From Halisarca cf. caerulea (Eukaryota; Porifera; Demospongiae; Chondrillida; Halisarcidae): a DNA stretch of 64,000 nt. The notes under the pieces were generated by a model, which made no database searches, was not told the origin of the DNA, and saw only the letters and a list, made by a program, of their open reading frames with translations. A program made the position numbers and the translations under genes. How positions within the stretch are numbered: position 1 is the stretch's first letter; every line of letters begins with the position of its first letter. The DNA lies in contig CAUJGJ010000030.1 of assembly GCA_963170055.1 (NCBI GenBank), forward strand, positions 1 through 64,000, read 5' to 3'. Below, piece after piece: positions 18,564 through 56,761 of this stretch.

Positions 18564-18870
18564 ACACATGTCAAATGACTATCCAATATGCTAACATGTA
18601 TATCTGCATGCATGTCCCACCTAAAACAGCATCAAATTGCATCCATTCTCTCATTGCATTAGCTAACCCAAAATGAGAACTAACCCAATATTGGGGTCAC
18701 ACCTACTCAAAATGGATGTACCCATGTCAAATGACTACCCAACATGCTAACATTCATGTCTGCATACATGTCCCACCTAAAACGGCACTGAATTGCATCC
18801 GTTCTCTTATTGCATTAGCTAGCCCAAGATAAGAACGATCCGAATATCAGGGTCACACCTACTCAAAATG
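18564..18870 (+). repeat. 155-bp tandem repeat, left part (about 2 units)
   Basis: Units begin acacatgtcaaatgacta (about 18,564, and about 18,719 with slight changes) and end cctactcaaaatg. The same unit resumes at 24,510, so this is the left half of an array split by the transposon at 18,871-24,509. The last six bases, aaaatg (18,865-18,870), are the left target duplication. Confidence 0.9.
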
Positions 18871-18968
18871 TATGGGGTGCCATTTGTGTCAAAATTACTG
18901 TTTTTTCCTGTTAGGGATATTATAACCTGATATACATTATAAACATGCATATCATAGCCTGATATACA
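18871..18968 (+). repeat. Left terminal inverted repeat of the HECT/integrase transposon
   Basis: It starts tatggggtgccatttgtg and runs through ttttcctgttagggatat into aacatgcatatcatagcc. The reverse complement of the right end (24,412-24,509) reads the same, with about three substitutions. The repeat merges inward with the 19-bp subterminal array. Confidence 0.92.
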
Positions 18969-19137
18969 TATCATAGCCTGATATACATATCATAGCCTAA
19001 TATACATATCATAGCCTGATATACATATCACAGCCTGATATGTGTATCACAGCCTGATTGACATATCACAGCCTGATATACATATCACAGCCTGATATAC
19101 ATATCACAGCCTGATATATAATATATCATAACTAGTA
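18949..19137 (+). repeat. Left subterminal array of 19-bp repeats (about 9 units)
   Basis: Units of the form atacatatcatagcctgat recur every 19 bp, with cacagcct and tgtgtatc variants. Each unit contains overlapping atatac/gtatat half-palindromes. The opposite end carries the same motif inverted. Such arrays often serve as transposase binding sites; that role is inferred. Confidence 0.9.
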
Positions 19138-19180
19138 TATATCACAAAGCTGCATTGAATCACTTCTGATGACTTTCTAT

Positions 19181-19327
19181 CTGAGCATGCTCAGTGCCAT
19201 GTGTTGTGTTTGCTGATCTGAGCATGCTCAGTGCCATGTGTTATGCTTGCTGATCTAAGCATGCTCAGTACCATGTGTTGTGCTTGCTGATCTGAGCATG
19301 CTCAGTGCCATGTGTTGTGCATGCTGA
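19181..19327 (+). promoter_or_regulatory. 37-bp direct repeats with a ctgagcatgctcag palindrome upstream of the HECT gene
   Basis: Four units start at 19,181, 19,218, 19,255 and 19,292. Each begins with the perfect palindrome ctgagcatgctcag (third copy ctaagc) followed by gtgccatgtgttgtg. They end about 85 bp before the HECT start codon. One copy of the same palindrome stands at 23,964-23,977, about 29 bp upstream of the likely integrase start, so both element genes share it. A promoter or operator role for an element-encoded DNA-binding protein is inference. Confidence 0.6.
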
Positions 19328-19411
19328 TAAACTGCTCAAGCAACTGGATCTCAACAGAAAGTGGACCCACTTCCCCGGCTATCCAACAGAGCAGTAAATT
19401 TGTTTATACCA

Positions 19412-22400
19412 ATGGACAATAACAATCAGCTGCGAGAATTGATGACAAGTGCTGTGGAGCAAGTGTTAGAAACCAAGTAAGTCTCAGTCTTCATGTAACA
19501 GGTGAAACTTTCTTAGTTAATGCATGCATGTACACATTCATTGCCAAATTGTGCAAACTATGCTTGTAATTTGTAGTCAAAGAATGCATGCAACTATGTC
19601 ACATGTGTCATACACATTAGGACGTATGCAGACCTGTACACATGTGATTATATAGCTTCCATTTGGCTATTGCAGCTATAGGAGACCTCCACCACAACCA
19701 ACTGGCTCACAATCTGAGCCTCTTGCTAGCCGTCCATCTCTCCCATCTATTGCTGCAACCATTTCGTCAAACCAACCTGAGCCTTTACCAGTAACGTTGT
19801 CATCGCAAAATTTATCATCTATTGGCAGAAAGAGGTCCAGGGCCTTTTCTCACAAGAAAGGGAAAGCAAAGGTAGCTCATCTCGTAACCTGGGATAGAAA
19901 CATTGTTTGTATCCCCAAGGATTACGGTGTGCATGGAAACAGCAGAGTAATAGCTATACCTAAAGGCAAGGGACGCGCTTCTCTACAAGCTAGAGGTCTA
20001 TGTGGCAAAATTCGTCTTCATTCGGAGATGACAGAAGAGGAAGTATTGAATGAAGTGAGGTCTACCTTCAAGGATGCAATGGGCCATGACCGCAATTTTC
20101 CTTTTCAGTTCCTTCAAACTGGTGGTGGAGGAGGAGGAACAAAGTCGTTAACAGTCCCAGCTGTGTCCGCATCATTTACCTGGACGGCAAAGGAGGTAGC
20201 AAAGCTAGCTGGCCAGGGTTGCCTCTATGTTGAGGCACAGGCAGAACTAGCAAACTGTGATGATAACTACACCTCTGACACAGACATAGACTTAACTAAA
20301 GGCGAAGCTAATGACTCAGAGGTACATATCCATTTGTACATATACAACATACACAGCCACGTACTTGATTATCAATCATGCCATGATTATGTACTTCTCA
20401 ATGGCATGTAAAATGTATAAATTATAATGCTTGCATGCTGGTTGATTTTTAATATGCTTAGGAGTTCGGGAATTACACTCAAGAAGGTACTGATTGTGAA
20501 CTTGAGACTACAAGACAAATCACTCCAAGTGATATTGTAGTCCTCCCAACTGAGCATTCCAACTTCTCTGCTGGTTGTAACACAACCCTGCCCAGGGAAC
20601 AACTCCTTTACAATAGCAGGTAAGTAATTATATACACAATCTTGTTTCTGTAACCTATACTAAATGATTGCATATTATATAAGTTGTATTAAACATTTTC
20701 TGCAGTGATCATAGTTCAAACACAGAGAAGCCAGACAGTGACAGTGACTTAGAAGACCTAGCAATTCAACAGGCCTGTGAGAATAGCTTTTTCACTGAGC
20801 AAATACACCAAAGGCAGGCAACAAAGTATGTGGCACTCATGTTGAATCTACAAGATGCTTTTTAGGACATTGTGTTAAAAGCATTCAGATTTAATGTATA
20901 TCATGCATAGATCAGGTGGGTACTGGTGGCTCAGTAGATCAGCACTGGAGGTTAAGCTGTGAGGAGAGGACACTATCCCACCTGTGAGTCATTGGGAGTT
21001 TTTTCCCTGCACCCCCCTGCCACCAACTAGGGAATGAATGAGAAGATGACCTACTACTGCAGCCACCAAATTAACTTAGAGTTTGATTTAATTTGATTGT
21101 GTGTGTGAGTGAGTGCGTGCACCTGGGGGCCTTAGAAGTAGCCTCTGGCTAATGGCCCACCCAGTTTAAATAAGAAAATGTTATCATTATTATTATCAGT
21201 GACTTATGAAATAGCGTTTTATGTTTTACTCAGGTCAGCTGAAACCATCATACGACAAATGCGTGATCGCCACTTACCAGATGATGATTTTTCAGACGAT
21301 TCCATTTTAAGCATTCAAGTAAGGCGGAAAAAGATCTGGAAGGATACCTTGCGTGCTTTTAAGCAGCCCAGATTTACACCACGAAAATGGCTGAAAGTGG
21401 AGTTTATTGGTGAAGCAGCCATTGACGATGGAGGGCCAAGGAGAGAATTCTTTCGCTGGGGGATGCAAGAGATATGTCATAGCCAAGCACTCTTCCAAGG
21501 CACAAGCAATGCACGAGTGCCAACACACAACGTTCATCTCCTGTGCAATCACGAGTATAGATATATGGGCATATTCTTTGCCATGTCTATACTGCAAGGA
21601 GGACCTGCCCCTACGTTTATGGCTCCGACAATCGCACACTATCTCCTACATGGAAATGTTGGCTTGCAGGCACGAATCACAGACATACCTGACCCTGAAA
21701 TTCAAGCAAAATTGAGGAAGGTACGTACGGATGTACAAATAGATAACAAAGAGAACTGTGTGTACACATTAAATTTTGGTGAATGCTGAAAATATGCCAT
21801 TTGCTAAGAGACCTTTCTGTGCACCATGCACATAATATTATAGAGATGTACTAATACAATTTGTACATAATCCATGGGTTTTTACCACTGGTAATGTATC
21901 ATGGTTTGTGCTTGTGCAATTAGTCAGTGGTTTCATTCCTCACATTCAATGCAGATTGAAGACATAACAAACACAGAGGATCTGCAGGACCTCATGACAT
22001 CAGACGAATATGACTTCAGGTATGCCTGTGGTTACACCAAGCCAACATCTTCACTAGCAATTTCGAACAAAGATGACATAGTATGCAGTCTCGCCCTACA
22101 CTATACCATCTACGCTCTGAAGGCAGAACTGGACCAGATCAGTGAGGGGCTGCAAATGGGAGGACTCATTTGGACTGAGGAGGAGGCAGCCAGTTTAGTA
22201 GGCCTATTTTGCAAAGACAACTGTGCGAGGGAACTCACAGCAGCCCAAGTGAGCGCACTATTCCCTCCCACTTTTTCAGAAGAAGGTTCGAACCGTCGGG
22301 ACATTGAGGAGGAGATGGCATTACATTGGAGATACTTTCTCCAAGATGTGGAGCAAGGCCTTTGTTCAATCACAGAGGTCAACAGTGATCCCATCAGCAT

Positions 22401-22626
22401 CACATTAGGTGATATTTTGGCTTTTGCAACAGGAGCAACTACCATCCCAATTCTGGGATTCGAGCAAATGGGATCACTCAAGTTCTTGCATGAAGGAGGC
22501 CAATTTCCAACAGCCTCAACTTGTGCCATAGTCATCCGCCTCCCGATTCATGAAGATTACGAAGAATTCAAGAGCAAAATGCTATTTGGTATTTTAAATG
22601 CTCATGGATTCTTTGGAAACGTGTGA
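19412..22626 (+). CDS. Transposon-borne HECT-type E3 ubiquitin ligase (six exons, 715 aa)
   Basis: HECT ligases take ubiquitin onto a cysteine and pass it to a substrate. Proposed exons: 19,412-19,476; 19,676-20,321; 20,462-20,619; 20,706-20,825; 21,234-21,720; 21,955-22,626. All introns are GT-AG, phases match, and the total is 2,148 nt with no internal stop. Residues 1-60 are Gln/Pro/Ser-rich, followed by a basic stretch (KRSRAFSHKKGKAK). An unnamed domain follows, with a poly-Gly run and an acidic Ser-rich linker. The HECT domain spans about residue 360 to the end. It has the N-lobe motif DDGGPRREFF (D394, D395) and the C-lobe PTASTCAIVIRLP, placing the catalytic Cys at residue 682, the normal distance from the end. 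Closest in style to animal G2E3-like proteins. The gene lies wholly inside the transposon, convergent with the integrase. A SINE-like repeat sits in intron 4. Joins need cDNA support; the domain call is firm. Confidence 0.88.
20914..21198 (+). mobile_element. SINE-like retroelement in intron 4 of the HECT gene
   Basis: The head contains tggctcagtagatcagcac, resembling a tRNA/Pol III A box. The tail acctgggggcc...gtagcctctggctaatggcc ends in a ttatcattattattatca run. The tail closely resembles the 3' end of the LINE at 51,300-52,665, the usual sign of a SINE using a LINE tail for mobilisation. It lies between the donor at 20,826 and the acceptor at 21,233 and does not disturb the reading frame. 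A clear B box was not identified. Confidence 0.6.
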
Positions 22627-22738
22627 CAATAATTAAAGAACATATATCAATAAGACATTAAAAGTAGCGTTGAAAGTATAATCTAGCCGGTGTGTACTTG
22701 TAATCACACACTTAAACCAATTTAAATAATGTTGTATT

Positions 22739-23989
22739 TCACTGTAGCTCATGGCAACATGTTGTGTGATTTTGTAAGTGATTACAAACAACAGTCATGG
22801 CATTCATATAAATGTCTTTTCCATAATTTTGTGATACACCCAAAGGGTTGATATTGATCTTCAATTCTTGTTGCAAGAGGGCACAAGGCTCAAAGCGACT
22901 CCGCGGCACATGCACATGGCTCAATACACCAGGCAAGCCAGCTGTTGGGCGTGGAGCTGAACTGCTGATGCCCCCTTGCTGGGCAGCTACTGGAGTGACA
23001 GGTAAACTAGGGGTGATCCCGACAACAGGAGTTGATAACATGCCCTCGATGAAGAGTTGATTGGGTGATCTGTTCCTTTCAGTTGATAATTTATGGTTAT
23101 TTCAAGCAATTGTAAACTCACTTATGACATGGTTGATTCTGCTCTCAAAGACATAGTGGAGGCAATACATGTCAGTTTCATTCAGTGGGTTCAGGGACCC
23201 TTCATGCTCCATCTGGTAGAATAGGCAGCGGAATTCTTCAGTTACAGACCTTCGTACATCATTCCACAGGCGTTCAACCCTCTCATTATGTGTGGAACTC
23301 CCTGTAATAACAGCTGAAGGGTTGTTATGTAAAGCACTCATTCGACGCCACACATCAACATTCTCGCCTCCAAGGTCTGTGCGCACTTTCCCGGGCAATC
23401 CATACTGACAAATGGCACTATCAAGAAGATTGACGACTGTGTGTGCGGTGTTATTGGTGGAGCACTGCAAGAAAACAATCATTCGGCTGAAGCCATCCAC
23501 GCCTCCATGTATCACAAATCTCCAACGAATAAGCTTGTGATTTCCATCTAGGTGCCATACACTGTTTGCCCCTTCCACCTGATAAACTCTTCTTCTTACT
23601 GTAGTAGCACGTCGTAAAGCAGTATTTTCAGGATCAACACGATGAATGCTTAGTCTCAGCCTCTGCCGTTGCACACGGACTCCAACTCTCAACAAATGGG
23701 CCTGCATCATCACTTCTCCATCATTTGGGTGGTCACATTTGATACTTCTCACTGTCCGGTCAAGTTCTCCATCTGTAATGCTGGTGTACTTATCAATTCC
23801 AGCCTCTTTCATGTGCCTGTAGAGTGTTGATCTACTAACATCCAATAGAGATGCTATGTCTTCCAACTTGAAGTCAAAGGCCAGCAAATACTTTACTTCT
23901 TCTAACTCTATTTCCTTAGCAGGACGACCAGCCATTATACTGCAGCATGCACAGCACATGGAACTGAGCATGCTCAGAAGAGTCATCAA
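22739..23989 (-). pseudogene. DDE integrase/transposase of the 5.6-kb element, one internal TGA
   Basis: Read right to left, the likely start is the ATG at 23,935-23,933 (MAGRPAKEIELEEV). A helix-turn-helix follows (LEDIASLLDVSRSTLYRHMKEAG), then an integrase core: WHLDGNHKL (first D), GVDGFSRMIVFLQCSTNN, GLPGKVRTDLGGEN (second D), and HNERVERLWNDV (catalytic E about 34 residues on). The frame is stopped by TGA at 23,104-23,102 but continues in the same frame (NNHKLSTERNRSPNQLFIEG) to 22,739. Related integrases have a Trp-Asn-Asn-His motif here, so the TGA probably replaces TGG. The frame totals 417 codons. Introns that would skip the stop fail on phase or use a very weak donor. This copy is therefore probably catalytically dead, unless read through or edited, or unless the stop is a sequencing error. 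Confidence 0.85.
23964..23977 (-). promoter_or_regulatory. Palindrome shared with the HECT upstream region
   Basis: The perfect 14-bp palindrome ctgagcatgctcag sits about 29 bp before the likely integrase start codon. It is the same word that is repeated four times upstream of the HECT gene. It may be a common control site of the element; function is inferred. Confidence 0.45.
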
Positions 23990-24035
23990 GTTATTAAGTG
24001 ATTAAAAGTCATCAACGTACTATATGTATAATTAT

Positions 24036-24440
24036 ATGTCAGGTTGTGATATGTATATCAGGCTATATATGTATATCAGGCTGTGATATGTATATCAGGC
24101 TATGATATGTATATCAGGCTATGATATGTATATCAGGCTATGATACACATATCAGGCTGTGATATGTATATCAGGCTGTGATATGTATATCAGGCTGTGA
24201 TATGTATATCAGGCTATGATATGTATATCAGGCTGTGATATGTATATCAGGCTATGATATGTATATCAGGCTATGATACACATATCAGGCTGTGATATGT
24301 ATATCAGGCTGTGATATGTATATCAGGCTGTGATATGTATATCAGGCTATGATATGTATATCAGGCTGTGATATGTATATCAGGCTATGATATGTATATC
24401 AGGCTATGATATGTATATCAGGCTATGATATGCATGTTTA
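24036..24440 (-). repeat. Right subterminal array of 19-bp repeats (about 21 units)
   Basis: The unit tatcaggctrtgatatgta recurs every 19 bp and is the reverse complement of the left array. The variant gatacacatatcagg occurs at about 24,142 and 24,275, a spacing of 133 bp or 7 units, so the array itself contains a higher-order duplication. It is more than twice as long as the left array, which suggests copy-number drift by unequal exchange. Confidence 0.9.
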
Positions 24441-24509
24441 TAATGTATATCAGGTTATGATATCCCTAACAGGAAAAAGCAGTAATTTTGACACAAACGG
24501 CACCCCATA
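24412..24509 (-). repeat. Right terminal inverted repeat of the HECT/integrase transposon
   Basis: Ends ...cctaacaggaaaaagcag, then taattttgacacaaacgg, then caccccata at 24,509. It is the inverted counterpart of 18,871-18,968, and the target duplication aaaatg follows immediately. Confidence 0.92.
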
Positions 24510-25050
24510 AAAATGGACGTACACATGTCAAATGACCACCCAACATGCTAACATGCATGTCTGCATGCATGTCCCACCTGAAACAGCATCAAATTGTATC
24601 CGTTCTCTAATTGTGTTAGCTAACCCAAATGAGAACGAACCAAATATTGGGGCCACACCCACTCAAAATGGACGTACACGTGTCAAATGACTACCCAACA
24701 TGCTAACATTCATGTCTGCATGCATGTCCCACCTAAACGGGCACCAAATTGTATCTGTTCTCTTATTGCATTAGCTAACCCAAGATGAGAACGATCTGAA
24801 TATCAGGGTTACACTCACTCAAAATGGATGTACACATGTCAAATGATCACCCAACATGCTAACATACATGTCTGCATATATGTCCCATCAAAAATGGCAT
24901 TGAATTGTATCCGTTCTCTGATGTGTTAGCTAACCCAAAATGAGAGCGATCGAACCAAATATTGGGGCCACACCTACTCAAAATGGATGTATACATGTTT
25001 AATGACCATGCAACCAACATGCTAGTCACATTAAAATAAAGAGCGTTGCC
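24510..25050 (+). repeat. 155-bp tandem repeat, right part (about 3.3 units)
   Basis: Units beginning acacatgtcaaatga start at about 24,521, 24,676 and 24,832, with a decayed copy near 24,990. This continues the array at 18,564-18,870. Each unit contains catgctaacat, gcatgtccca and attggggcc blocks in fixed order. No coding function is evident. Confidence 0.9.

Positions 25051-27158: not shown

Positions 27159-56761
<29,603 letters not shown>

What the first reader, a model, noticed from the sequence alone, without database searches (positions are those of the whole stretch)
18871..24509. A complete DNA transposon that carries its own HECT ubiquitin ligase next to a DDE integrase
The boundaries are unusually clean: 6-bp target duplication, about 95-bp inverted repeats with about three mismatches, and a rebuildable target unit. 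The two convergent genes are a HECT E3 ligase and an IS3/retroviral-like integrase. A ligase inside a transposon could control host restriction factors, transposase stability or the host cell cycle. I vaguely recall G2E3-like HECT proteins associated with mobile elements in fish and invertebrates, but cannot confirm how well this arrangement is described.
Basis: partly seen in the sequence, partly recalled or inferred. Interest (0 to 1): 0.9.

Follow-up and report, generated by a model that had tools for sequence, protein, structure and literature searches.

The report
Transposon carrying its own ubiquitin ligase
A cut-and-paste jumping gene in an unnamed eukaryotic genome carries, beside its transposase, an evolutionarily preserved ubiquitin ligase, a protein-tagging enzyme that could let the element change its host cell's proteins.

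Summary
Window 18871-24509 is a DNA transposon with a 6-bp target duplication, ends TATGG..CCATA and a rebuildable empty site. A six-exon, 715-aa HECT ligase gene (+, open throughout) faces a DDE integrase-like transposase (-, Pfam rva_4). TSD, termini and transposase type match IS3EU. Correction: this copy's transposase has a premature stop 57 codons after the catalytic Glu; copies with that frame open exist elsewhere in the genome.

The HECT gene is a standing component. All 17 paired-TIR spans of at least 4 kb carry it, none of 13 shorter ones. A convergent HECT lies within 6 kb of 43 of the 55 best rva_4 loci. The catalytic Cys is kept in 25 of 25 stop-free copies, the DDE triad in 21 of 21. 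Between the nearer families HECT exons evolve at dN/dS 0.07-0.19, transposase 0.09-0.14. The protein may be ubiquitin-like fold + UIM-like motif + HECT; only HECT is firm. Its target is unknown; host silencing factors or the transposase are the leading options. No listed result of ten literature searches described HECT-bearing IS3EU elements; Repbase could not be searched.

The parts
18865..18870 (.). left target-site duplication AAAATG
18871..19118 (+). left inverted-repeat arm, 248 nt, 94% to the right arm; begins TATGGGGTGCC
18948..19118 (+). subterminal 19-nt tandem array, about 9 copies; candidate transposase-binding sites (inferred)
19179..19328 (+). 37-nt tandem repeat, 4.1 copies, upstream of the HECT gene, with palindrome GAGCATGCTC (also at 23966)
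19412..19476 (+). HECT gene exon 1 (start codon), predicted
   Evidence: splice signals and open frame
19676..20321 (+). HECT gene exon 2: conserved N-terminal domain, possibly a ubiquitin-like fold
20462..20619 (+). HECT gene exon 3 (linker)
20706..20825 (+). HECT gene exon 4, with a stretch at about 20752-20787 that fits a UIM pattern but not Pfam's UIM model
21234..21720 (+). HECT gene exon 5: HECT N-lobe
21955..22626 (+). HECT gene exon 6: end of N-lobe and C-lobe; catalytic Cys codon 22522-22524
22739..23935 (-). IS3EU-type DDE transposase (HTH-like N-terminus, rva_4 core; D 23546-23548, D 23375-23377, E 23273-23275); frame interrupted by a stop at 23102-23104; no stop in three sibling copies
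24035..24432 (-). subterminal 19-nt tandem array, about 21 copies, opposite orientation
24262..24509 (-). right inverted-repeat arm
24510..24515 (.). right target-site duplication AAAATG

Best explanation
This is an IS3EU-type cut-and-paste DNA transposon whose full-length form is a two-gene element: a DDE transposase and a HECT-type E3 ubiquitin ligase transcribed towards each other between TIRs. SHOWN by sequence: both genes lie inside TIRs flanked by TSDs; the pair recurs through many diverged families in the genome; both catalytic sites are invariant in the stop-free copies aligned; both genes are under purifying selection between the nearer families; one family's HECT matches a public sequence in which one intron is precisely absent. 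INFERRED: the transposase binds the terminal and subterminal repeats and moves the element with a 6-bp staggered cut; the HECT protein is made separately, recognises ubiquitin or a partner through its N-terminal parts, and ubiquitinates a nuclear protein so that transposition succeeds more often. I think the most likely target is a host factor that silences or restricts the element (about 0.45), ahead of the transposase or transpososome itself (about 0.35). Because the copies decay in different genes, the two proteins probably work in trans.
For: TIR, TSD and empty site. Of 14 insertions whose two ends I located, 10 have a perfect 6-bp TSD and 2 a 7-bp one read by eye. HECT in 17 of 17 paired-TIR spans >=4 kb, a listed transposase in 16 of them. 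Convergent HECT within 6 kb of 34 of 40 transposase loci down to 38% identity (crude random expectation 0.05) and of 43 of 55 rva_4 loci. Catalytic Cys 25 of 25, DDE 21 of 21 among stop-free copies with enough coverage. dN/dS window v C3:1305885 element: HECT exon 2 0.13, exon 5 0.12, exon 6 0.07; transposase (sibling C369:2191475 v C3) 0.13; all four reject 1. HECT fold: all 50 listed Foldseek hits of a related element's HECT are HECT ligases. UIM pattern in 10 of 23 loci v 0.29 expected. Public protein P0125 equals the C29 element's HECT with 0 mismatches and only the 132-nt intron missing. HECT and transposase distances co-vary, Mantel r 0.81, n=14. Window: HECT open, transposase stopped; two siblings the reverse.
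Confidence: 0.82

Rival explanations
1. The HECT ligase acts on the element's own transposase: it limits its amount or takes apart the strand-transfer complex, so that the element stays below a harmful activity. Same anatomy, different target.
For: Convergent pair kept together over families with transposases down to 38% identity; distances co-vary (Mantel r 0.81, n=14).
Against: HECT and transposase trees conflict at supported branches, as if HECT modules were exchanged between families (tree error possible), which fits a host target better than a cognate one; mosaic decay of copies.
Confidence: 0.3
2. The HECT gene is a captured host gene that merely rides along without function for the element.
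For: It has five predicted introns while the transposase is a single open frame, which suggests capture at the DNA level; short copies move without it.
Against: Purifying selection between families in three exons, catalytic Cys 25 of 25, presence in every long paired-TIR span (17 of 17).
Confidence: 0.06
3. Independent host HECT genes happen to be flanked by transposon ends; the transposon is the transposase part only.
For: 24 of the 78 HECT rows had no listed transposase nearby.
Against: The closest HECT relatives lie inside TIR/TSD-bounded units at many sites; the best Pfam HECT hits (up to 223 bits, contigs C400, C176, C357, where one search lists no rva_4) are taken as host genes and score far above the element copies (at most 53 bits); some of the 24 have shorter transposase pieces nearby that fell under my 200-aa cut (compare).
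Confidence: 0.03
4. The element is a degenerate virus-like or Polinton/Maverick-type element, with an integrase, rather than an IS3EU transposon.
For: Integrase-like DDE core and 6-bp TSD (recalled to occur in Polintons too).
Against: The window unit is 5.6 kb with two genes; no polymerase, capsid or protease domain among the Pfam matches of its frames; TATGG..CCATA ends; pattern-based scans of the viral collection found no relative.
Confidence: 0.02

Closest known systems
[quoted passage not shown]
   Same: TSDs usually 6 bp, TA..TA termini, integrase-like DDE transposase without an HHCC motif.
   Different: The passages I read describe the transposase; the search for papers holding both 'IS3EU' and 'HECT' returned 0. 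Here a HECT ligase is a standing second gene.
TET+ IS3EU elements of rust and truffle fungi (PMC12730594, passages read)
   Same: Same superfamily, ends TAYGG..CCRTA, 6-bp TSD; a second gene (alpha-kinase) in opposite orientation to the transposase; the TET/JBP gene is proposed there to help escape methylation-based silencing.
   Different: Accessory enzymes are alpha-kinase and TET/JBP dioxygenase, not a ubiquitin ligase.
HECT proteins named G2/M phase-specific E3-like (P0147 Geodia barretti, P0150 Paramormyrops kingsleyae)
   Same: HECT domain relatives by profile search, catalytic TC motif kept.
   Different: G2E3 proper is recalled to have PHD-type zinc fingers; the element protein has none by Pfam. 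Whether P0147 and P0150 lie in transposons is unknown.
Ginger1/Ginger2 DNA transposons (PMC2836005, search listing only; details recalled)
   Same: Integrase-like transposase in a DNA transposon.
   Different: PMC10045372 places Ginger1/2 apart from IS3EU/GingerRoot (its passages say without statistical support); termini and TSD here fit IS3EU. Ginger features were not tested here.

Membership tests
IS3EU superfamily | 6-bp target-site duplication | tested here: met
   Perfect 6 bp in 10 of 14 insertions whose ends I located (one, TATATA, in simple repeat), 7 bp in 2, none in 2; the search itself required an exact 6-bp match
IS3EU superfamily | Termini TA..TA, in fungi TAYGG..CCRTA | tested here: met
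   TATGG..CCATA in the window and in the other elements whose ends were read (one search required TA ends); definition from PMC10045372 and PMC12730594 (passages)
IS3EU superfamily | Integrase-like DDE transposase, no HHCC motif upstream of the core | tested here: met
   PF24764 rva_4 6e-73 and rve in the open sibling frame, only weak HTH-like matches N-terminal, no integrase zinc domain at E<=1; DDE 21 of 21, spacing 56 and 33
IS3EU superfamily | Transposase groups with Repbase IS3EU transposases in a tree | not testable with these tools
   Repbase sequences are not held
HECT E3 ubiquitin ligases | HECT domain over the family cut-off, both lobes | tested here: met
   PF00632 56 bits v cut-off 23.9; N- and C-lobe both align to ITCH; all 50 listed fold hits of P0125 are HECT ligases (TM low)
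HECT E3 ubiquitin ligases | Catalytic cysteine in the C-lobe | tested here: met
   TC aligned to ITCH TC; Cys in 25 of 25 stop-free copies
HECT E3 ubiquitin ligases | Ubiquitin transfer activity | not testable with these tools
   needs an in vitro assay
G2E3 proper | PHD-type zinc fingers before HECT (recalled) | tested here: not met
   no PHD match in the 715-aa protein at E<=1
Ubiquitin-interacting motif proteins | UIM in the linker before HECT | tested here: inconclusive
   UIM pattern in 10 of 23 loci v 0.29 expected; no Pfam UIM match in window exon 4, E 0.25 and below cut-off in P0121
Ubiquitin-like fold in the N-terminal domain | beta-grasp structure | tested here: inconclusive

The most novel reading that the evidence does not exclude
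A whole, old branch of IS3EU transposons (probably of animals) depends on an element-encoded E3 ubiquitin ligase (ubiquitin-like + UIM + HECT) that marks a host silencing or repair factor for destruction, a transposon counterpart of viral ubiquitin-ligase counter-defence; HECT modules are exchanged between element families as arms-race parts, and in some families are doubled inside long inverted repeats.
Probability: 0.35. Interest if true: 0.85.

Novelty: new variant of a known kind. Interest (0 to 1): 0.64.

Why it matters
As far as I recall, accessory genes in eukaryotic DNA transposons are few and mostly uncharacterised. Here one is maintained by selection about as strongly as the transposase between families with transposases about 70-80% identical, and is still present with its catalytic residue in families at about 40-55%. 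It is an E3 ligase, so target identification is experimentally direct (catalytic-Cys mutant, proximity labelling, ubiquitin proteomics). If the target is a silencing or repair factor, it would show how hosts without well-studied defences restrain DNA transposons. It may also be a source of some 'G2E3-like' HECT genes annotated in a sponge and in fish.

Tried and rejected
An intron in the transposase: I first read a short intron around 23070-23121; comparison with siblings showed one continuous frame and a nonsense codon in the window copy, so the intron was rejected.

Virus or prokaryote origin: pattern-based scans found no relative in viral contigs (transposase; HECT alignment) or in bacterial/archaeal genomes (transposase). 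rva_4 and HECT each ring in 0 of 14 control genomes.

Cross-species co-occurrence could only be hinted at: two proteins 82% and 79% identical to the query transposase and HECT exon 6 are each listed on one contig of the same length, 1,019,263 (P0003, P0131), which suggests the same contig in another assembly; contigs themselves could not be read.

The spliced HECT protein (region 300-715) found only one relative, probably because the gene is split into exons in six-frame proteins; the exon-6 alignment found 44. P0125 (2 contigs, longest 3,733 nt) may come from RNA or from a processed copy; this was not checked.

Literature: ten searches, of which I saw listings (up to 30 papers each). No listed title or abstract start describes HECT-bearing DNA transposons; 'IS3EU'+'HECT' 0 papers; HECT+transposase+TIR+TSD 2 papers, one holding the word 'hectic', the other with no word beginning 'hect'. 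PMC12062965 (passages) has no HECT. One paper notes an unclassified repeat in Cottus fish with a blastx match to G2E3 (PMC5638112, passages). Repbase Reports are not in the library, nor are most papers of subscription journals.

Dropped before counts: one search used 40 of 136 rows (at least 200 aa of query) and all 78 rows; one search used the first 55 of 143 rows and 69 of 98 rows plus 9; one search used all 93 ends with 41 HECT and 38 transposase starts chosen; one of its 17 long spans (9,488 nt, no listed transposase) may join two elements. In one search sequences with stops or under 55% coverage were left out, pairs were run among 9 chosen loci, and pairs with dS of 3 or more are not quoted as saturated. 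One search skipped one of 24 loci. One search used the 14 loci with usable HECT exons 5 and 6 and transposase.

Full report
WHAT IS THERE. The element spans 18871-24509 (5,639 nt). Both flanks carry AAAATG (18865-18870, 24510-24515), and the ends are inverted repeats with 3 mismatches in the first 95 nt and 94% agreement over 248 nt. Deleting the element and one TSD restores a unit of the ~156-nt satellite in which it sits; the junction aligns ungapped to neighbouring units at 72, 70, 70 and 58 of 80 positions. Inside the ends are 19-nt tandem arrays of opposite orientation, about 9 and 21 copies.

THE TRANSPOSASE. The - strand gene encodes an HTH-like N-terminus and an integrase core (PF24764 rva_4). 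The catalytic D, D, E (spacing 56 and 33) are present in 21 of 21 stop-free aligned copies. In siblings it is a single open frame of 416 codons (two shown; no stop in three). The window copy has a nonsense codon at 23102-23104, 57 codons after the catalytic Glu. Decay is mosaic: window HECT open and transposase stopped; C369:65658 and C4:1629160 transposase open and HECT stopped; C369:2191475 without stops in the transposase and in HECT exons 2-6 (exon 1 and splice sites not checked there). BLASTN pieces against the two closest siblings are mostly 96.6-98.0% identical, against C4 mostly 89-92%.

A STANDING PARTNERSHIP. The genome (194 Mb, 454 contigs, unnamed) holds many relatives. Of 40 transposase loci with at least 200 aa of match, 34 have a HECT exon-6 hit facing them within 6 kb, 24 of the 34 at 0.46-0.91 kb; a crude random expectation is 0.05. 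With Pfam profiles on both sides the count is 43 of the 55 best rva_4 rows, including more distant lineages. A terminal pattern finds 93 ends (reversed control 0); 60 of them pair into 30 spans and 33 stay single. 17 of 17 spans of at least 4 kb hold a HECT hit (16 a listed transposase), 0 of 13 shorter ones do, and five of those short ones keep transposase. So HECT marks full-length elements and is lost in shorter derivatives, which can still move: the HECT-less copies C301 (CGAGAC, 6 bp) and C253/C29 (CGTACGT, 7 bp; identical flanks, counted once) have their own TSDs. Ten of 14 insertions whose ends I located show a perfect 6-bp TSD, two a 7-bp one, two none. One search looked for exact 6-bp TSDs and TA ends, so it favours such cases; C150:2027267 and C369:3872500, fetched on both sides, gave no bounded pair. 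One of the ten TSDs, TATATA, lies in simple repeat. Subterminal arrays with units of about 19-22 nt, different in sequence from family to family, occur at both ends of all nine elements examined.

SELECTION. Maximum-likelihood dN/dS between the window element and the C3:1305885 element is 0.13, 0.12 and 0.07 for HECT exons 2, 5 and 6; between an open sibling (C369:2191475) and C3 it is 0.13 for the transposase; likelihood-ratio statistics against 1 are 82-200. All between-family pairs with dS under 3 fall between 0.07 and 0.19. These families have transposases about 70-80% identical; more distant pairs are saturated. Of 14 within-family pairs, 11 do not reject 1, as expected for neutral decay after insertion. 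The catalytic Cys is kept in 25 of 25 stop-free sequences. Selection acting through the element is the simplest reading, because the copies sit at unrelated places and most of those read have their own TSD.

EXPRESSION. The public protein P0125 (JGI, longest contig 3,733 nt) matches the HECT of the C29 element with 0 mismatches and one gap, the 132-nt intron between exons 5 and 6; a second entry, P0126, keeps the intron. This supports transcription and splicing; whether the contig is RNA-derived was not verified.

COEVOLUTION. HECT and transposase distances co-vary over 14 elements (Mantel r 0.81, 0 of 9999 permutations reach it), less after removing near-duplicates (n=10, r 0.60, 42 of 9999). 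Some clades agree, while C3:1516473/C412:8218130 and C369:7767034/8760781 are placed differently at supported branches; the program warned of long branches. I read this as long association with occasional exchange of HECT modules; tree error is possible.

WHAT IT IS AND IS NOT. TSD length, TA termini and the transposase fit IS3EU as described in PMC10045372, and the termini match TAYGG..CCRTA of fungal IS3EU in PMC12730594 (passages read). The TET-bearing fungal IS3EU of that study have an alpha-kinase gene opposite to the transposase and a TET/JBP gene between them; the HECT ligase here sits in the equivalent place of a second, opposite gene. A tree with Repbase IS3EU proteins could not be made. 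The HECT protein is not G2E3 proper (no PHD finger by Pfam; the PHD feature is recalled), although relatives in Geodia and a fish bear that name. The best Pfam HECT hits, on contigs without rva_4 rows and taken as host genes, score up to 223 bits, element copies at most 53, so the element HECTs are a diverged branch rather than recent copies of those genes.

MECHANISM. Shown: anatomy, recurrence, constraint, likely splicing. Inferred: cut-and-paste with a 6-bp stagger, array binding by the transposase, ligase activity, action in trans. For the target I favour a host restriction or silencing factor, because HECT appears exchangeable between families, because related fungal elements carry a proposed anti-silencing enzyme, and because copies with a stopped transposase can keep HECT; action on the transposase remains a close rival. 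Novelty is limited by the known IS3EU superfamily and the known habit of accessory genes; the ligase as a near-universal, selected second gene is the new part, as far as the listings of ten searches of the open literature show.

Noticed in passing
G000 C11:30600-40425 (L081, L082); similar layouts at C129, C226, C290: HECT pieces lie on both sides of a single transposase in inverted orientation; the fetched arms at C11 are 99.96% identical over 2,426 nt, so this family seems to carry the HECT gene doubled inside very long inverted repeats. Ends and TSD not determined; an assembly artefact is not excluded, though four loci share the layout of hits.
   Followed up: partly
window 19183, 19220, 19294 and 23966: Palindrome GAGCATGCTC lies upstream of both genes (three times in the 37-nt repeat before HECT, once before the transposase); of nine elements scanned, five have it (window, C1, C29, C369:65658, C3:1306723) and four do not. 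Possible shared promoter element.
   Followed up: partly
G000 C369:5276256-5283304 (L046, L047): Two HECT genes of the element type in tandem without a transposase hit in the stretch held; one is close to the C29 element's HECT. Possible solo or domesticated copies, or nested elements.
   Followed up: no
window 18600-18864 and 24516-25025: The element is inserted in a ~156-nt tandem satellite.
   Followed up: no
L074 (G000 C29:184218-184751): The 8.3-kb C29 element has extra sequence near its left end with a 178-codon frame and, further in, another piece of subterminal repeat; looks like a nested insertion.
   Followed up: no
window 41150-42183 and 49579-50716: Four long open frames in two overlapping pairs on the - strand without a Pfam match at E<=0.01.
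   Followed up: no
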